A stretch of DNA of 26,085 bases from a virus. The notes under the pieces are model-generated. The model was not told the DNA's origin. It did no database searches and worked only from the letters and a program-made list of their open reading frames with translations. Of the stretch, positions 13,891 to 19,359 are shown one piece after another. Location of the stretch: positions 1 through 26,085 of IMG/VR virus record IMGVR_UViG_3300021364_000392; one strand, written 5' to 3'. A program made the translations under genes and the position numbers. How positions within the stretch are numbered: position 1 is the first letter of the stretch; each line of letters starts with the position of its first letter.

Positions 13891-14490
13891 TCAGGCGACA
13901 GTAAGGGTAGCAGCGTCGGAGGTTACGTCAGTAGAAGCACCAGTGTTGGAAACAACGACTCTGTACTGATATGTATCCAGTCCAGTAGAGTCTGAAATGT
14001 CCAGAGTGCTTGCAGTTGTGCCACTGTAGACACCAGCTTCAGCAAGATTGGCGAAGGTAGTGCCACCATCAGTAGACTCTTGCCACTGGAAGGTCAGTGT
14101 TCCACCAGCAGGTGTTGTGCTAGCAGCAACTACAAACTGAGCAGCGGCAGGAGCAGTTACGCTAGCAGCAGCTGGTTGAGAATCAATAGCGATTGTGTAA
14201 TCTGCTGCGATTGCGTCGTCTGGCTGAGTCTCATTAGCGTTGAGATCAGGACCAGTGATGAATGCTAAGCACTCAGCTTTGGTGCGAGTAACGCTGCCCT
14301 GTGCATAAGTGTGGAAGTTCCACCAACCAGGACCATTAATTCCTCTTGCTTTGTTCTCAGCAAGTGCTGCTTCCTGTTCGTCAACAAAGACTACAGTCAT
14401 ATCACTGCTAGCACTGGCAGGACCATTGCCGCGAGTAGCTTCAACTTTAGTCTTGTTTGCGTTGGAATCAGTTCTTCCGTATAACGCCAT
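13891..14490 (-). CDS. Ig-like-domain protein, probable virion surface protein
   Basis: 199 residues. Residues 1-75 form a distinct domain (MALYGRTDSNANKTK, GPGWWNFHTYAQG, AECLAFITGP). Residues 105-199 look like an immunoglobulin-like fold: TLTFQWQESTDGG (the core Trp), then YSGTTASTLDIS and YQYRVVVSNTGAS (the Tyr corner). Ig domains are common on capsids and tails of tailed phages and help weak surface binding. It follows an exact TATAAATA late promoter with AGGGAA as ribosome site, which fits a structural gene. Confidence 0.8.
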   Translation of the reverse strand: MALYGRTDSNANKTKVEATRGNGPASASSDMTVVFVDEQEAALAENKARGINGPGWWNFHTYAQGSVTRTKAECLAFITGPDLNANETQPDDAIAADYTIAIDSQPAAASVTAPAAAQFVVAASTTPAGGTLTFQWQESTDGGTTFANLAEAGVYSGTTASTLDISDSTGLDTYQYRVVVSNTGASTDVTSDAATLTVA

Positions 14491-14821: not shown

Positions 14822-14970
14822 TATTTATTCTTATTTTTATGCTTCCATGCAGTTGCATAAGCAATAGATTTTTCGTCCTTCGTTAACTTACCATCCTTAG
14901 CATATCCTTTTTTGATATGCTTCACCATTCTTTCAAATTTTTTGCCAGGAGGTGCCTCCTCCTGACTCAA
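14821..14970 (-). CDS. Small basic protein with TTG start (49 aa)
   Basis: An open frame with no upstream ATG: TTG 14970-14968 overlaps the TGA of the gene above (TTGA), giving a start of LSQEEAPPGKKFERMVKHIK type and then GYAKDGKLTKDEKSIAYATA followed by WKHKNKNK. It is strongly basic and helical, of the sort seen repeatedly in T4-like cyanophage structural genes (recalled family pattern, not searched). The internal ATG at 14928 gives 35 residues. Its stop codon is part of the next late promoter. Function unknown. Confidence 0.6.
   Translation of the reverse strand: MSQEEAPPGKKFERMVKHIKKGYAKDGKLTKDEKSIAYATAWKHKNKNK
14822..14829 (-). promoter_or_regulatory. Late promoter (AATAAATA)
   Basis: AATAAATA on the - strand, overlapping the end of the small TTG-start gene (codons AAT AAA TAG). 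24 nt before ATG 14797. Confidence 0.65.
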
Positions 14971-15890
14971 TACTTTTTTGCTTTCTTGCTACCACCGTCA
15001 CAACCACAACCCTCATCTACTGTGGGGCAGCACTCTTTGCCGTGCTCAGGACAGTCAGTTCCTTCGGGAGTAGCATTACACTTTTTTGCTTCTTCAAGAC
15101 CCATCTCCTTACGCCAATCAGAACGCTCTTCCTTCTTCATTCCGATTGCTTTACCGATTGCCTTACGACGCTTCATCAGATACTTGTCTGAAGAATCCTT
15201 ATCACCGTCATTATCTACATCACCATCTTCCTTACCGACTGGATCAAGTTTTTTCTCATCAAGACCCTCTTCTTTAACGCAGTTAGGAACAACCTTACCG
15301 CCCTTGTTCTTCGTACCCTTTGCTTTATAACCATCCCAGCATTTGTCAGCACCAACATTCTTGCGTGCTTGCTTCATGCTGCCTTCAAAGATTCCGCCTC
15401 TAGAAAGATTAGCAACAGCAGCATCCATCAATGATGATGTGAACTCATCTGATACTTCCTGCTTGTTTTCAACTTCACCGTAGCACTCTCCTCCACTAAT
15501 ACCTGAGGCAGTACGTTTGATTAATGATTCTGAATAACTATCGTTGTACATTTCTTTCTGGGTACTTTTTCTTTTATTATTTATCATAGTAGACCATTCT
15601 GGAGTCTTGGTCTTGCCATATCTTTCCTTCTTCTGACCAGGAGTAAGATCCTGAAGATACTCTCTGGTCTCATCAGTGCCAAGTTCATGAACCTCACTGA
15701 TGTCAGAAATCCAACTTCTAAATGTCTTATGATTTTCATCTAAGCAGATGACATAGTTTGGTCCACGCCTGATAATAGTGCCGACCTGATCATTTCCATT
15801 ACGAACTTTCATCCCTTCTGGGAAGATCTCATCGTTATAATATTGTTCACGGATGTAAACCTTCTGAGTGTATTCTGAAAAGTTGTACAT
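14967..15890 (-). CDS. Multi-module protein: KOW/SH3-like N-terminus, EF-hand-like loop, Cys-rich tail
   Basis: 307 residues. Residues 25-70 (KVRNGNDQVGTIIRRGPNYV then ICLDE) resemble a KOW/SH3-like barrel. Residues 172-205 have KQARKNVGADKCWDGYKAKG and KGGKVVPNCVKEEG, a Cys-bearing module. Residues 222-237 (EDGDVDNDGDKDSSDKY region) are an aspartate loop as in EF-hand or dockerin calcium sites. The tail has six Cys at about 271, 280, 287, 288, 295 and 297, likely to bind metal or form disulfides. Late promoter 23 nt upstream. Structural role inferred; no enzyme motif seen. Confidence 0.75.
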   Translation of the reverse strand: MYNFSEYTQKVYIREQYYNDEIFPEGMKVRNGNDQVGTIIRRGPNYVICLDENHKTFRSWISDISEVHELGTDETREYLQDLTPGQKKERYGKTKTPEWSTMINNKRKSTQKEMYNDSYSESLIKRTASGISGGECYGEVENKQEVSDEFTSSLMDAAVANLSRGGIFEGSMKQARKNVGADKCWDGYKAKGTKNKGGKVVPNCVKEEGLDEKKLDPVGKEDGDVDNDGDKDSSDKYLMKRRKAIGKAIGMKKEERSDWRKEMGLEEAKKCNATPEGTDCPEHGKECCPTVDEGCGCDGGSKKAKKY

Positions 15891-15912: not shown

Positions 15913-15920
15913 TATTTATT
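15913..15920 (-). promoter_or_regulatory. Late promoter (AATAAATA)
   Basis: AATAAATA on the - strand, overlapping the TAA stop of the nucleotidyltransferase gene at 15919-15921; 22 nt before ATG 15890. Predicted start near 15907. Confidence 0.65.
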
Positions 15921-16482
15921 ATTTAAAATTAGCAGGCAGATTGTTTGCAATCTCCTGCATCAATTTTTTGCAATCATTATCTCTCAGTGCAGTAGGAATA
16001 CCTTTCCTAAATGTAGTAAAATCTCCTGCTGCAGCAGCACGTCTCATCTTAGTTCCAGAGATAGCAAATGTATCACCATCAGCATCTCTACTGCCAGAGG
16101 ATTTAATCTCAATATTTCGGAAAGAAAAATCCTTTCCATTATATCTGTGTAGGAATTGCATAGCAGAAACTCTATCGGAACCTACAAGGAATACCACCTC
16201 ATCATATCCTGCCATCATAATGTCCTGCAAAATAGCAACAGGATCTCTAGGACCAGAGTAAATCTTTCCTTTATGTTCAGGAAAAGATAGATTCATATAA
16301 TGTAGTTTCCTATCAGGAGGAAGAGGATTACTTCCCTTCTTATCTACAGTCTGAGAAATGTAGATACGATAGTCATTAGTCCCTGCTGCTCTCTTTACGC
16401 CAGCAAAGTTTTCTTTATGTCCAGTGGTTGCTGGTTGAAATCTACCAAATGTAAAATAACAAGTCTTTCCGTCTAACGCCAT
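15919..16482 (-). CDS. Cytidylyltransferase-fold nucleotidyltransferase
   Basis: 187 residues. GRFQPATTGH (13-22) is the (H/T)xGH nucleotide-binding signature of the HIGH superfamily and ISGTKMR (141-147) is the ISxTxxR motif; VGSDR (100-104) fits the ribose-contact loop. Relatives include NMN and phosphopantetheine adenylyltransferases, so it transfers a nucleotide to a small phosphate substrate, perhaps NMN, but the substrate cannot be read from the sequence. It overlaps the ligase-like gene by 10 nt and is the third member of a coupled cassette under a late promoter. Confidence 0.82.
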   Translation of the reverse strand: MALDGKTCYFTFGRFQPATTGHKENFAGVKRAAGTNDYRIYISQTVDKKGSNPLPPDRKLHYMNLSFPEHKGKIYSGPRDPVAILQDIMMAGYDEVVFLVGSDRVSAMQFLHRYNGKDFSFRNIEIKSSGSRDADGDTFAISGTKMRRAAAAGDFTTFRKGIPTALRDNDCKKLMQEIANNLPANFK

Positions 16483-17666
16483 TGTTTCTGAAGAGTGAAA
16501 TTGTTGTACGCAAACTCAAGACGATTCACGAACTTAATCATGTCTCCGTCTTTATGCATAACATATCCTTCAGGAGTAGTTACTTTGTAACCCTTATCTG
16601 TCTGAACAAATGTCCTGAATGTTTCAAGTTTATCTAATTTATCTATAACCATTTGCTTCACTGCCTGCATTTCTTTATATAAGGCAAGCAAAGATTTAAA
16701 CTTATAGACATTATCTACAAGATATTTTTCACTTTGGTAAACAAGATTACGTTTCTTAGTAAGGTTTGCTGCTGTCTTAATCTTAGCAAGTTCCTTGCTA
16801 GTCTTAGCATGATAGAAGTTTGCTAGATCATATAGTGCTTCATCAACATTACTGATACTACGAGCATTTTTAATCTGATCATTAAAATATGGTTTCAAGA
16901 ATGTAGAAATGTGGAACTTCGCATCACCAGTACTACCACTTACACCAACTAATTCATCAAGAAAATCTCCACAGATACCACACATACGTTCAATCTTAGA
17001 AATATAATTATTAAATCTCACCATCTCTGCTCTATCAAATCCAACTTTATGCATTGGAGTATCATTTTTTACAACCAAAGCATCAGCAGAACCTTCAATG
17101 TTTGCACCAGCAAGTGCCTGCATAGATTGAAAATCTGTCCCAGAATAATGAGTATGAAAGACTACACCAATCTGAGCACGACCTGCTGCCTGCCCTATAG
17201 GATGATCTACTGGAATACCATATGTGATGGTGTTGGGTCTAAATGTATAAAGTTGCTCGCCATCAATAGTTTCCCTCTTCAAAGTAGACTTAGTAAATAA
17301 AAGATCTCCCTGGAAGATACCATTCATTCTAAGTTTTGAGAAATACTTCAAAGAAAATTTCAACTTCTCTGCAAGATCTCCTTCATAATAAAGATCAACA
17401 TCTTCTGGGGCATAGCAAATTTTAGGATTTTTTGCGAATACAGATTTAGTACCGACAAAAAACATACCAGTATTTGGATCCGTGCCACAGATAAGAGACG
17501 GTGCTCCATCCCATTTTGTTTGCATAAATCCAGCAGAATCCTGTTGTCCCAACATCTTGGTCAGTTCTTTGAGAAAAGATACTGCAGCAGCGCATCCCTC
17601 TGAACCATAGTTCAGCATCTCATCTTCCAAATGTTCTAAGTGTTTTAGTTGTGTTACGTTTGCCAT
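16473..17666 (-). CDS. DUF6267-type protein with ligase-like nucleotidyltransferase motifs
   Basis: 397 residues. The N-terminal half carries, in the right order, motifs like those of ATP/NAD-dependent ligases: TKWDGAPS (Lys51, Asp53, Gly54; motif I KxDG), FVGTKSVFAK (about 70-79), GIFQGDLLFT (116-125; place of the DGEL motif III) and EGSADALVVKND (191-202; motif IV EGxVxK with Lys200). The C-terminal half is helical and basic. The family assignment to DUF6267 is from memory of cyanophage proteins. Ligase or adenylyltransferase activity is inferred; Gln replaces the usual acidic residue before GDL. The start overlaps the preceding stop (TAATG). Confidence 0.7.
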   Translation of the reverse strand: MANVTQLKHLEHLEDEMLNYGSEGCAAAVSFLKELTKMLGQQDSAGFMQTKWDGAPSLICGTDPNTGMFFVGTKSVFAKNPKICYAPEDVDLYYEGDLAEKLKFSLKYFSKLRMNGIFQGDLLFTKSTLKRETIDGEQLYTFRPNTITYGIPVDHPIGQAAGRAQIGVVFHTHYSGTDFQSMQALAGANIEGSADALVVKNDTPMHKVGFDRAEMVRFNNYISKIERMCGICGDFLDELVGVSGSTGDAKFHISTFLKPYFNDQIKNARSISNVDEALYDLANFYHAKTSKELAKIKTAANLTKKRNLVYQSEKYLVDNVYKFKSLLALYKEMQAVKQMVIDKLDKLETFRTFVQTDKGYKVTTPEGYVMHKDGDMIKFVNRLEFAYNNFTLQKQWR

Positions 17667-18808
17667 TAGTCGTCGTATCCGTCTGAAGGAATGCTATAAA
17701 CAGTTTCCATATTGAACTTATATCCAGATTGCAACTTATCTGGCCAGGGGTCTGGACTTCCGCTCGTATCACGAATATTAAACTTAAGTTCCATCGCTGG
17801 GGTCTTCACTGTAATATCAACACGCTGCCCAGTTCCAGTCTTTCCACCATAGTGAACTATAACATTGTTCACAGTTGTTGATGAGTCACATATTTGTTTG
17901 GTCATAGGGAAATTTTTAATAGTATTTCCTCTCTCCTTATGTGTATAATGATACCCATAACCAATAGAACCACGAATCATACTCTGCAGCAATGTTCTAT
18001 TAAATTTAGGATTGTTGTCATTGCCACCACTAACAACTTCACCTTTATATGCTTCATTAAAGATTGCACAGAATCTTTCATTATCAATACCAAAAGTTTC
18101 TAGAATTTTCAATCCAGTTCTATTAGTAATATTTCCTGCTTGAATCTCATCTTTAGTAAATATTTTCTTAAGTCCTAAGTTAGACATCGTTGTTGTCCCA
18201 CCCTTCTTTAGTGAAAGATAGATGGTTCTATCTGCCTGCCCCTTACACTTTGTTTCTAATGTGAGGTCAGTAACGATGTGACCAATATCATAATTTGATG
18301 CCGTAGCTTCTCCGATCTTCCATCCATTGCCCTCAAATGAAATCGGTCTTGGTTTATTCTGAGGACCCTCATTAACCAAAACAAAAGAACAATCATCAAG
18401 ATTATAAGTCTTGATCAAATCAGCGATAAAATTTTTGTATGTATTATTGGAGTATTCACCAGTCTCAATCCAATCATTGAGTCCTCTTTCAAGTTGTTGT
18501 TCAAACAAGTTACCAGTATTTCCCGTCCCGCGATTTCCTCTACTACCATCACCCCAACTCATTTTGAGTTTAGTAATTTTTAATTTTCTCTTAAGTTCAG
18601 CAAGTGCTATATCATCCTTCAATGCTCTTGCAATTTTCACATTTGATTTATTTGTGGGATCAAATGCTAAAGGGTTTGGTAAAATATTTCCGTAGTTCTC
18701 ATTCAAATAATTCCACAGGCGAAGAGATTCTTTCGCCACAGGATCTTCCATATGCTTTACTGACTTTCCTGCTTCAGAAAAAGTTGATGGGATAAGATTA
18801 TATGCCAT
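17666..18808 (-). CDS. Restriction-endonuclease-like PD-(D/E)XK protein (putative)
   Basis: 380 residues. GNLFEQQLERGLNDW (99-113) looks like the leading helix with a Glu of restriction-type nucleases; IGHIVTDLTLETK (175-187) could hold the metal Asp181, and TIYLSLKKGGTT (196-207) the S-L-K version of the (D/E)xK motif. A C-terminal region (about 300-370) is beta-rich. Family not recognised, so nuclease activity is inferred from motifs. Late promoter and ribosome-site hairpin just upstream (18814-18837), AAGGGGG 7 nt before the ATG. First gene of a three-gene coupled cassette. Confidence 0.68.
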   Translation of the reverse strand: MAYNLIPSTFSEAGKSVKHMEDPVAKESLRLWNYLNENYGNILPNPLAFDPTNKSNVKIARALKDDIALAELKRKLKITKLKMSWGDGSRGNRGTGNTGNLFEQQLERGLNDWIETGEYSNNTYKNFIADLIKTYNLDDCSFVLVNEGPQNKPRPISFEGNGWKIGEATASNYDIGHIVTDLTLETKCKGQADRTIYLSLKKGGTTTMSNLGLKKIFTKDEIQAGNITNRTGLKILETFGIDNERFCAIFNEAYKGEVVSGGNDNNPKFNRTLLQSMIRGSIGYGYHYTHKERGNTIKNFPMTKQICDSSTTVNNVIVHYGGKTGTGQRVDITVKTPAMELKFNIRDTSGSPDPWPDKLQSGYKFNMETVYSIPSDGYDD

Positions 18809-18813
18809 TAAAA

Positions 18814-18830
18814 AACCCCCTTACGGGGTT
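18814..18830 (-). terminator. Hairpin with U run overlapping the ribosome-binding site
   Basis: - strand AACCCC (18830-18825), loop GTAAG, GGGGTT (18819-18814), then U (18813-18811) and UA before ATG 18808. It looks like a terminator for the early replication operon, and it also buries AAGGGGG, the ribosome site of the next gene. A transcript from the late promoter would start at about 18824, right after the 5' arm. Confidence 0.75.
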
Positions 18831-19359
18831 ATTTATTCGGAACAGCGAAGTTAAAATTGATTAGTAGTCTACACTTCTCATCAGAACATGTGAATCCAAC
18901 ATGCTCATGATGAGATTTAAATAAAACCATTCTATTTTCAACAGAATCTACTTCGGTGCCATCCTTAAATTTAGTGTATCCATTATTACTATTAACATAG
19001 TAAATTGCTGTCATACAATCGTAGTCAAAATCAACATGATAGTTTCCGAGTTGATAGTTTCCTTCTTCTCGGGGATTCAAATTTACTTTTGCACGATAGA
19101 GAATGATATGTCTATGCGTTTTAGCAAAGAGCATAGCAAACTTTTGTATGATGGGATCAATTTCAGGATAAAAGTTACTTGATATTCCTACATTAATATC
19201 ATAAAGCATATGAACAAATTGCCCACGCTCTTTGCTATCAGGAATTCCCCTCTCGGTGATGTTAGGACACCAACTCCAATACAATTTATCGTTAACTACT
19301 GAGGATAACTGTTCGTATTGGTGATGGGGTAAAAAATTATCAAGAACTTTTATCTTCAT
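18829..19359 (-). CDS. 2-oxoglutarate/Fe(II)-dependent oxygenase
   Basis: 176 residues. YHVDFDYD (107-114) supplies the HxD iron ligands (His108, Asp110); SHHEHVG (149-155) supplies the distal His (151 or 153); the 2OG-binding Arg is probably Arg164 in KCRLLINF. These match the double-stranded beta-helix core. The family hydroxylates proteins, nucleic acids or small molecules; the substrate is unknown. Such genes are frequent in cyanophages. Last gene of the early replication operon, with ATGA overlap to mazG. Confidence 0.85.
   Translation of the reverse strand: MKIKVLDNFLPHHQYEQLSSVVNDKLYWSWCPNITERGIPDSKERGQFVHMLYDINVGISSNFYPEIDPIIQKFAMLFAKTHRHIILYRAKVNLNPREEGNYQLGNYHVDFDYDCMTAIYYVNSNNGYTKFKDGTEVDSVENRMVLFKSHHEHVGFTCSDEKCRLLINFNFAVPNK
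18830..18837 (-). promoter_or_regulatory. Late promoter (AATAAATA) ending in hairpin 5' arm
   Basis: AATAAATA on the - strand, overlapping the stop of the 2OG oxygenase (AAT AAA TAA). With T4 spacing the +1 is 18824 (G), leaving a 15-nt leader that starts GTAAGGGGG and carries a free ribosome site. Confidence 0.7.

What the first reader, a model, noticed from the sequence alone, without database searches (positions are those of the whole stretch)
15919..18808. Late cassette: restriction-like nuclease, ligase-like nucleotidyltransferase, cytidylyltransferase-fold enzyme
Three coupled genes (1-nt and 10-nt overlaps) sit under one switchable late promoter. The first shows PD-(D/E)XK-like motifs, the second shows KxDG ... 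GDL ... EGxxxxVVK in ligase order, and the third has TxGH and ISxTxxR. Cut, seal or adenylylate, and nucleotide transfer together could form an end-processing, nucleic-acid repair, NAD-linked or anti-defence system. I do not know a described system of this make-up; this is the best candidate here for something new.
Basis: partly seen in the sequence, partly recalled or inferred. Interest (0 to 1): 0.66.

Follow-up and report, generated by a model that had tools for sequence, protein, structure and literature searches.

The report
Phage nuclease, ligase-like, NMNAT-like gene trio
Three linked genes of a marine cyanobacterial virus encode a restriction-enzyme-fold nuclease, a ligase-fold nucleotidyltransferase and an NAD-enzyme-like protein; signals and published proteomics of relatives suggest the set is packed inside the virus head and delivered with its DNA, a combination I found described nowhere.

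Summary
Three ORFs (A 17666-18808, B 16473-17666, C 15919-16482, minus strand) overlap by 1 and 10 nt. A's predicted structure matches type II restriction enzymes (HinP1I Z 10.2, MspI Z 8.7; D181, S199, K201 invariant). B and C are linked in 73/73 viral contigs and fused in some phages. The gene upstream of B is often REase-like but belongs to many unrelated families; some phages lack it.

New: N-termini of many B and C homologues, and some A-slot proteins, match the T4 capsid-targeting sequence (IPII/IPIII MKTYQEFIAEA): B 16/34, C 42/109, other ORFs 8/578. Published virion proteomics and record annotation place C in four phages' virions and the A-slot protein in one. I read the cassette as a head-packaged, probably injected nucleic-acid-processing kit. 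Packaging is inferred for this phage, whose A, B and C lack a clear signal. Substrates and purpose are unproven. A restriction-site-avoidance test did not tie A to a target site.

The parts
17666..18808 (-). Gene A, 380 aa: restriction-endonuclease-fold nuclease (phrog_8438); candidate active site E103, D181, S199, K201
   Evidence: AF2 pLDDT 83; HinP1I Z 10.2, MspI Z 8.7 and Foldseek E 1.3e-4; invariants
16473..17666 (-). Gene B, 397 aa: DUF6267 (PF19782), ligase-fold nucleotidyltransferase core (about residues 30-200 and 350-391) with a helical insert (about 211-344); motif I K51-W-D-G, III Q119-G-D, IV E366-G-Y-V, V K378-x-V-x-R
   Evidence: Pfam E 4e-120; AF2 pLDDT 87.8; ligases fill most of the top 40 VIA-align rows, best Z 6.9; invariants
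15919..16482 (-). Gene C, 187 aa: NMNAT-like HIGH-superfamily nucleotidyltransferase (phrog_3041/395, T4-GC190 'cytidyltransferase'); T19-T-G-H22 and ISGTKMR
   Evidence: profile match to MJ0541 NMNAT E 0.008; TIGR01526 NadR E 0.009, below cut-off
14967..15890 (-). Gene D, 307 aa: N-terminal domain found fused to C in other phages; C-terminal DVDNDGDKDSSDKYL module shared with D-type proteins of other phages, of which two are virion proteins
   Evidence: phrog_395/455 cross-matches; motif; D-type proteins in virions of S-SZBM1 and S-SCSM1
18809..18837 (-). AATAAATA (18830-18837, late-promoter-like) followed by a terminator-like hairpin CCCCGTAAGGGG-T6 directly before the ATG of A
   Evidence: sequence; site 18830-18837; number of such sites in the window near chance
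13891..14490 (-). Head protein (phrog_613) downstream of D; the same-size, same-position gene product of S-SZBM1 (ORF136, 199 aa, 'virion structural protein') was seen in its virion
   Evidence: Table 1 of PMC9146016; gene order

Best explanation
A-B-C(-D) is a conserved module of marine T4-like phages that encodes a head-packaged kit for processing nucleic acids. A is a restriction-endonuclease-fold nuclease. B has the core of the covalent nucleotidyltransferase (ligase/capping) superfamily and should load AMP on Lys51. C is a NadM-like enzyme that joins a nucleotide to a small phosphate, most simply making NAD+ from NMN and ATP. In many relatives the proteins carry a T4-type capsid-targeting peptide, would be cut by the prohead protease, and would enter the cell with the DNA. 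There they would act at once: A cuts host or rival nucleic acid (or damaged or branched phage DNA), B adenylylates or seals ends, and C keeps NAD+ available or recycles the NMN released if B uses NAD+. Shown: gene order, conservation, folds (predicted), signal enrichment, published virion detection in relatives. Inferred: packaging in this phage, injection, catalysis, substrates and purpose.
For: Fold of A: HinP1I, MspI, then HhaI, SwaI and Hjc. Fold of B: NgrRnl, Trl1, T4 Rnl2 and DNA ligases fill most of the top 40 rows, with motif residues invariant. C: GRFxPxTxGH-type and xSxxxxR-type motifs in nearly all; best solved relative is the NMNAT MJ0541. Linkage: C lies within 600 nt of B in 73/73 viral contigs and downstream in 21/31 marine genome contigs; 466 and 524 phage records hold B and C. 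Fusions: B-C in S-PM2 (591 aa) and in L133/L134; phrog_455 runs B-C-D. Capsid-targeting-like N-termini: B 16/34 and C 7/24 in the diverse set, C 42/109 overall, against 7/171 and 8/578 other ORFs (Fisher p 1e-9, 3e-4, 2e-29); T4 IPII and IPIII match the same pattern. Virion detection: C in S-SM1, S-SZBM1, S-SCSM1 and S-CREM2; S-SCSM1's record labels the A-slot protein, C and D 'virion protein'; the S-SZBM1 and S-SCSM1 C proteins carry the signal.
Against: A, B and C of this window have no clear targeting signal. B has not been reported in any virion in the data I could read; it is absent from the S-SZBM1 list and labelled hypothetical in S-SCSM1. Virion authors note possible carry-over of abundant proteins, and C was not detected in the S-PM2 virion. 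No A-like gene lies beside C in P-SSM2, or was found in S-PM2 or S-SKS1. Loss of restriction sites does not track A. B is not recognised as a ligase by sequence profiles.
Confidence: 0.45

Rival explanations
1. The genes are an ordinary replication/repair set expressed in the infected cell and not packaged: B is the phage's own ligase (these cyanophages have no other), A a resolvase- or repair-type nuclease, C a helper that feeds NAD+. Virion peptides are carry-over.
For: The module sits beside polB, uvsX, gp41 and mazG, with gp61 and nrdA downstream. All 8 cyanophages tested lack ATP- and NAD+-dependent DNA ligase families. A's fold also resembles Hjc resolvases (Z about 5). Window proteins lack the targeting signal.
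Against: Vibrio phage EniLVp02 and DLP_6 keep B although they encode an ATP-dependent DNA ligase. The targeting-like signal is strongly enriched on B and C. In S-SCSM1 a contiguous block of these genes is labelled virion protein.
Confidence: 0.27
2. The module is NAD-centred counter-defence: C (with B) restores or traps NAD+ or a nucleotide signal, and A removes the trigger. It works like NAD+-rebuilding phage pathways but with other enzymes.
For: C is NMNAT-like. Physical fusion of a possible NAD+-using ligase-type enzyme with an NMNAT-type enzyme fits NMN recycling. Jumbo phages are reported to carry NMNAT-type NAD systems (PMC7824862).
Against: No NAD-specific residue or partner was found here; PADLOC finds nothing. 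C carries TxGH as in PPAT, so its substrate is open. NAD donor use by B is a guess.
Confidence: 0.15
3. A is a selfish or self-serving endonuclease with a changing recognition sequence, and B/C are neighbours only. The phage genome is purged of A's site.
For: The nuclease slot is filled by many unrelated families. The window has CCGG 0/21 and TCGA 1/57 of expected, and A resembles N^CGN cutters such as MspI and HinP1I.
Against: CCGG is also absent from S-PM2, in which no A was found. TCGA loss differs between phages whose A proteins are 87-90% identical. The slot is repeatedly beside B or C, not scattered.
Confidence: 0.08

Closest known systems
T4 internal head proteins (IPI, IPII, IPIII): capsid-targeting sequence, packaged and injected, very diverse (PMC3012670)
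   Same: N-terminal pattern of many B and C homologues matches T4 IPII/IPIII; one variable slot beside constant partners; relatives found in virions
   Different: Here the cargo are enzymes of at least three folds in a conserved operon; the window's own proteins lack the signal; injection not shown
HinP1I / MspI type II restriction endonucleases (PD-(D/E)XK)
   Same: Predicted fold over about 206 residues; D...xK core
   Different: Active-site variant is SxK; about 90 extra N-terminal residues; no methyltransferase in the cassette; own-site avoidance does not track it
Naegleria gruberi RNA ligase, Trl1, T4 Rnl2 and DNA ligases (covalent nucleotidyltransferases)
   Same: KxDG, QGD, EGxV and KxVxR in ligase order on a similar core
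   Different: GD for GE, unusual motif V, large helical insert, no OB domain identified, no sequence-profile match
NadM / NMNAT (MJ0541) and other HIGH-superfamily nucleotidyltransferases
   Same: GRFxPxTxGH and xS(G/A)(T/S)xxR motifs; best solved relative
   Different: TxGH as in PPAT; weak score; substrate unknown; phage records call it cytidyltransferase
Polyvalent proteins of phages, predicted to be injected (PMC5512222)
   Same: Several unrelated enzyme activities delivered together as early effectors
   Different: Mostly separate genes here; the cited survey did not mention this set in the passages I searched

Membership tests
PD-(D/E)XK type II restriction endonuclease (gene A) | REase core fold | tested here: met
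   HinP1I Z 10.2 (206 aa, 3.8 A), MspI Z 8.7, Foldseek E 1.3e-4
PD-(D/E)XK type II restriction endonuclease (gene A) | D ... (D/E/variant)xK catalytic residues conserved | tested here: met
   D181, S199, K201 and E103 invariant in 35 sequences; E/D replaced by S
PD-(D/E)XK type II restriction endonuclease (gene A) | Cuts DNA at a specific site | not testable with these tools
   Needs an assay; indirect site-avoidance test did not track A
PD-(D/E)XK type II restriction endonuclease (gene A) | Cognate methyltransferase alongside (restriction-modification system) | tested here: not met
   No methyltransferase among the cassette genes or tested neighbours; S-RSM4 has one about 9 kb away
Covalent nucleotidyltransferase (ligase) superfamily (gene B) | Motif I KxDG | tested here: met
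   K51, D53, G54 in 44/44
Covalent nucleotidyltransferase (ligase) superfamily (gene B) | Motifs III, IV, V in order | tested here: met
   Q119-G-D121; E366-G367-x-V369; K378-x-V380-x-R382; variant forms
Covalent nucleotidyltransferase (ligase) superfamily (gene B) | Nucleotidyltransferase fold | tested here: met
   Top rows all ligases, Z 6.9-5.3, rmsd about 4.2-5.0, 155-185 residues; moderate, Z under 8; Foldseek alone only weak
Covalent nucleotidyltransferase (ligase) superfamily (gene B) | Recognisable by sequence profiles | tested here: not met
   No PDB or Pfam ligase hit; hhalign at control level
Covalent nucleotidyltransferase (ligase) superfamily (gene B) | OB or other ligase-type second domain | tested here: inconclusive
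   Model shows a helical insert, no OB domain identified; the helical part was not searched alone
NMNAT (gene C) | HxGH-type and ISSTxxR-type motifs | tested here: met
   TxGH and ISGTKMR
NMNAT (gene C) | Closest characterised relatives are NMNATs | tested here: inconclusive
   MJ0541 E 0.008; TIGR01526 and TIGR00482 below cut-off
NMNAT (gene C) | Makes NAD+ from NMN and ATP | not testable with these tools
   Needs an assay
T4-type internal head protein | N-terminal capsid-targeting sequence | tested here: inconclusive
   Enriched in homologues; not found in the window's A, B or C
T4-type internal head protein | Present in the virion | tested here: inconclusive
   Literature and record annotation for C, D and one A-slot protein in relatives; not B, not this phage
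T4-type internal head protein | Injected with DNA | not testable with these tools
   Needs an infection experiment; no data found for this family

The most novel reading that the evidence does not exclude
Marine T4-like phages load their heads with, and inject, a set of a rapidly exchanged restriction-type nuclease, a new ligase-superfamily enzyme (DUF6267) and an NMNAT-type enzyme; the last two work as a coupled NAD+-using pair in which C remakes the NAD+ that B spends. It would be an injected cut-and-process system not described before.
Probability: 0.2. Interest if true: 0.85.

Novelty: new variant of a known kind. Interest (0 to 1): 0.6.

Why it matters
B and C are found in most sequenced T4-like cyanophages, among the most abundant phages in the sea, yet B has no function and C is usually called a cytidyltransferase. 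If packaged, they would extend T4's small injected inhibitors to an injected enzyme kit, would explain why an NMNAT-like protein keeps turning up in cyanophage virions, and would open DUF6267 to direct biochemical test (AMP on Lys51; ATP or NAD+).

Tried and rejected
2) A's own restriction site visible as avoidance: the window lacks CCGG (0/21) and TCGA (1/57), but CCGG is also absent from S-PM2 where no A was found, and TCGA loss varies among phages with 87-90% identical A; rejected as evidence for A's specificity. 3) Upstream nucleases as one family: hhalign finds almost no similarity among families, and a loose D...[SEQ]xK regex is not informative (hits 37-75% of shuffles and 56% of control proteins). 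So outside the window family and its relatives 'REase-like' rests on my reading of the catalytic stretch, not on a test. 4) B as plain replacement DNA ligase: weakened by Vibrio and Stenotrophomonas phages that have both. 5) B vs ligase sequences by hhalign: no signal above controls. 6) A search for Rnl2 relatives in viral contigs gave nothing usable. 7) PADLOC: no hits. 8) Literature for DUF6267: none in the library; nothing found on capsid targeting of cyanophage enzymes. Plain Foldseek on B gave only weak NAD+-ligase rows among noise.

Full report
What is there. The window is a 26 kb fragment of a virus record close to T4-like cyanophages: megablast hits are almost all Synechococcus phages, and the neighbours are polB, uvsX, gp41, mazG, primase and other T4-type genes. 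Three overlapping genes on the minus strand are as described: A 380 aa, B 397 aa, C 187 aa, followed after a short gap by D, 307 aa.

Gene A. No Pfam family scores above cut-off. AlphaFold2 with 35 natural homologues gives pLDDT 83. Foldseek's only significant PDB hit is MspI (E 1.3e-4); VIA-align gives HinP1I Z 10.2 and 9.2, MspI 8.7, then Hjc, HhaI and SwaI, well above the unrelated rows. E103, D181, S199 and K201 are invariant. I take A as a restriction-endonuclease-fold nuclease with an SxK site; from memory, MspI and HinP1I also replace the acidic residue (by N and Q).

Gene B. It is DUF6267 (E 4e-120). With 44 homologues from viral and marine genome contigs the model has pLDDT 87.8. Foldseek against PDB is weak, but VIA-align puts RNA and DNA ligases in most of the top 40 rows (NgrRnl 6.9, Trl1 5.8, T4 Rnl2 5.3). 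Z below 8 alone would not be enough; the order of conserved motifs adds weight: K51-W-D-G, Q119-G-D, E366-G-x-V, K378-x-V-x-R. Two N-terminal histidines (H9, H12) are also invariant. A helical insert separates the two halves of the core. Sequence profiles do not see ligases, so B is at best a remote branch. Among viral predicted structures, after its own family, viral RNA ligases appear only as weak, non-significant rows.

Gene C. Called cytidyltransferase in phage records, its motifs GRFxPxTxGH and (I/M)S(G/A)(T/S)xxR and best solved relative (the NMNAT MJ0541, E 0.008) point to an NMNAT-like enzyme. Published work on S-SCSM1 (PMC9602691) and S-CREM2 (PMC10665884) already uses the NMNAT reading.

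Linkage. B is found in 466 and C in 524 of 50,697 phage records, mostly T4-like cyanophages. C follows B within 600 nt in 73/73 viral contigs with room for it, and in 21/31 marine genome contigs C lies downstream. These 73 are close relatives of the query, so they are not independent; the 31 genome contigs are the more diverse set. Vibrio phage EniLVp02_0207, annotated DNA helicase, is C by profile. B and C are fused in S-PM2 (591 aa in one database entry; the older record is split) and in L133/L134; phrog_455 spans B, C and the N-terminal domain of D. Upstream of B lies, in most full loci, a nuclease-like gene; among the 80 nearest viral contigs 53 are of A's family, 11 of phrog_1462 and 9 of the DLP_6 type. 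These families are nearly unrelated by profile comparison. Several carry a D...SLKK-like stretch, but I could not test their fold. In 56 fragments phrog_1462 sits before C with no B gene detected; in S-H38 and S-SCSM1 B lies elsewhere in the genome. No A-like gene lies beside C in P-SSM2, and none was found in S-PM2 or S-SKS1.

Head signals. Reading the N-termini I noticed MKSFxxFLxEA-like starts. The pattern [MVL].{1,2}[FY]..[FYH][LIVFM].E matches T4 IPII and IPIII (MKTYQEFIAEA), whose targeting sequence is known to direct proteins into the T4 head (PMC3012670). It occurs at the N-terminus of B in 16/34 and C in 7/24 of diverse marine loci and C in 42/109 overall, A-slot 6/29, against 7/171 and 8/578 other ORFs and 9/3706 internal windows. 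The pattern was chosen after seeing examples, and related loci are not independent, so the p values are indicative; the diverse subset guards partly against this. S-SZBM1 and S-SCSM1 C proteins, both detected by mass spectrometry, have the signal (MRFRQFIIEA, MKSFLQFLKEA). In the S-SCSM1 record the A-slot protein (phrog_1462), C, D and further proteins are neighbouring 'virion protein' entries. In S-SZBM1 (PMC9146016), C and D are listed while A and B are not. C (T4-GC190) was in the S-SM1 virion but not found in S-PM2 (PMC3037559). The authors of two studies warn of carry-over.

How it may work. Shown: order, conservation, predicted folds, signal enrichment, published detection of C, D and one A-slot protein. 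Inferred: packaging of the whole set, injection, activity. The simplest chain is that A cuts nucleic acid, B loads AMP on Lys51 and acts on ends, and C supplies or recycles NAD+. If B is NAD+-dependent, NMN is its product and C's substrate, which would explain the fusion; no residue tested here proves the donor. The eight cyanophages tested lack known DNA ligase families, so B may also be their only ligase-like enzyme.

Site avoidance. The window lacks CCGG and nearly lacks TCGA (0/21, 1/57 expected); a 193 kb relative has no TCGA at all (0/273), S-RSM4 no CCGG (0/135). I hoped this would reveal A's target, but the losses do not follow A. It remains an unexplained, strong feature.

Verdict. 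The finding is real and better than it looked in one way (wide conservation, head signals in relatives) and weaker in another (one motif wrong, promoter unproven, function open). I score it 0.6, as a new variant of the injected internal-protein kind, with a lower-probability, more novel reading as a coupled injected system.

Noticed in passing
window 1-26085; L237-L240 (S-RSM4); G016 (L261-L270): Switch-like loss of palindromic tetramers: CCGG 0/21 and TCGA 1/57 in the window, CCGG 0/135 in S-RSM4, TCGA 0/273 in a 193 kb relative; it does not track gene A.
   Followed up: partly
L087 (11 kb), L089 (12 kb): The DLP_6 and EniLVp02 stretches show no GGCC (0/34 and 0/37 expected).
   Followed up: no
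L088 3995-5774 (S-PM2): The S-PM2 record splits the B-C fusion into p141 and p142; another database entry has the 591-aa fusion.
   Followed up: partly
L089 7056-7943: EniLVp02_0207 annotated as DNA helicase is a C (NMNAT-like) homologue.
   Followed up: yes
L087 6682-8850: DLP_6 'cytitidyltransferase' carries a C-terminal ParB-like region after the HIGH domain.
   Followed up: no
S-PM2, S-SSM5, S-RSM4, P-SSM2, P-HM2, S-SKS1, S-H38, S-SZBM1 records: All eight cyanophage genomes lack PF01068 and PF01653 DNA ligases.
   Followed up: yes
window 15221 (minus); L088, L090, L091, L093: D[VI]DNDGD..SD.YL...RK module recurs in D-type proteins and their neighbours in several cyanophages; possibly a second head-targeting or calcium-binding module.
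   Followed up: partly
window 18829-19359: Gene upstream of A matches phrog_274 'DNA endonuclease V' but also weakly a 2OG-Fe(II) oxygenase family; probably misnamed.
   Followed up: no
L217 37629 (minus): S-SZBM1 has another 105-codon ORF with a targeting-like start MKSFKSFLSES, a candidate internal head protein.
   Followed up: no
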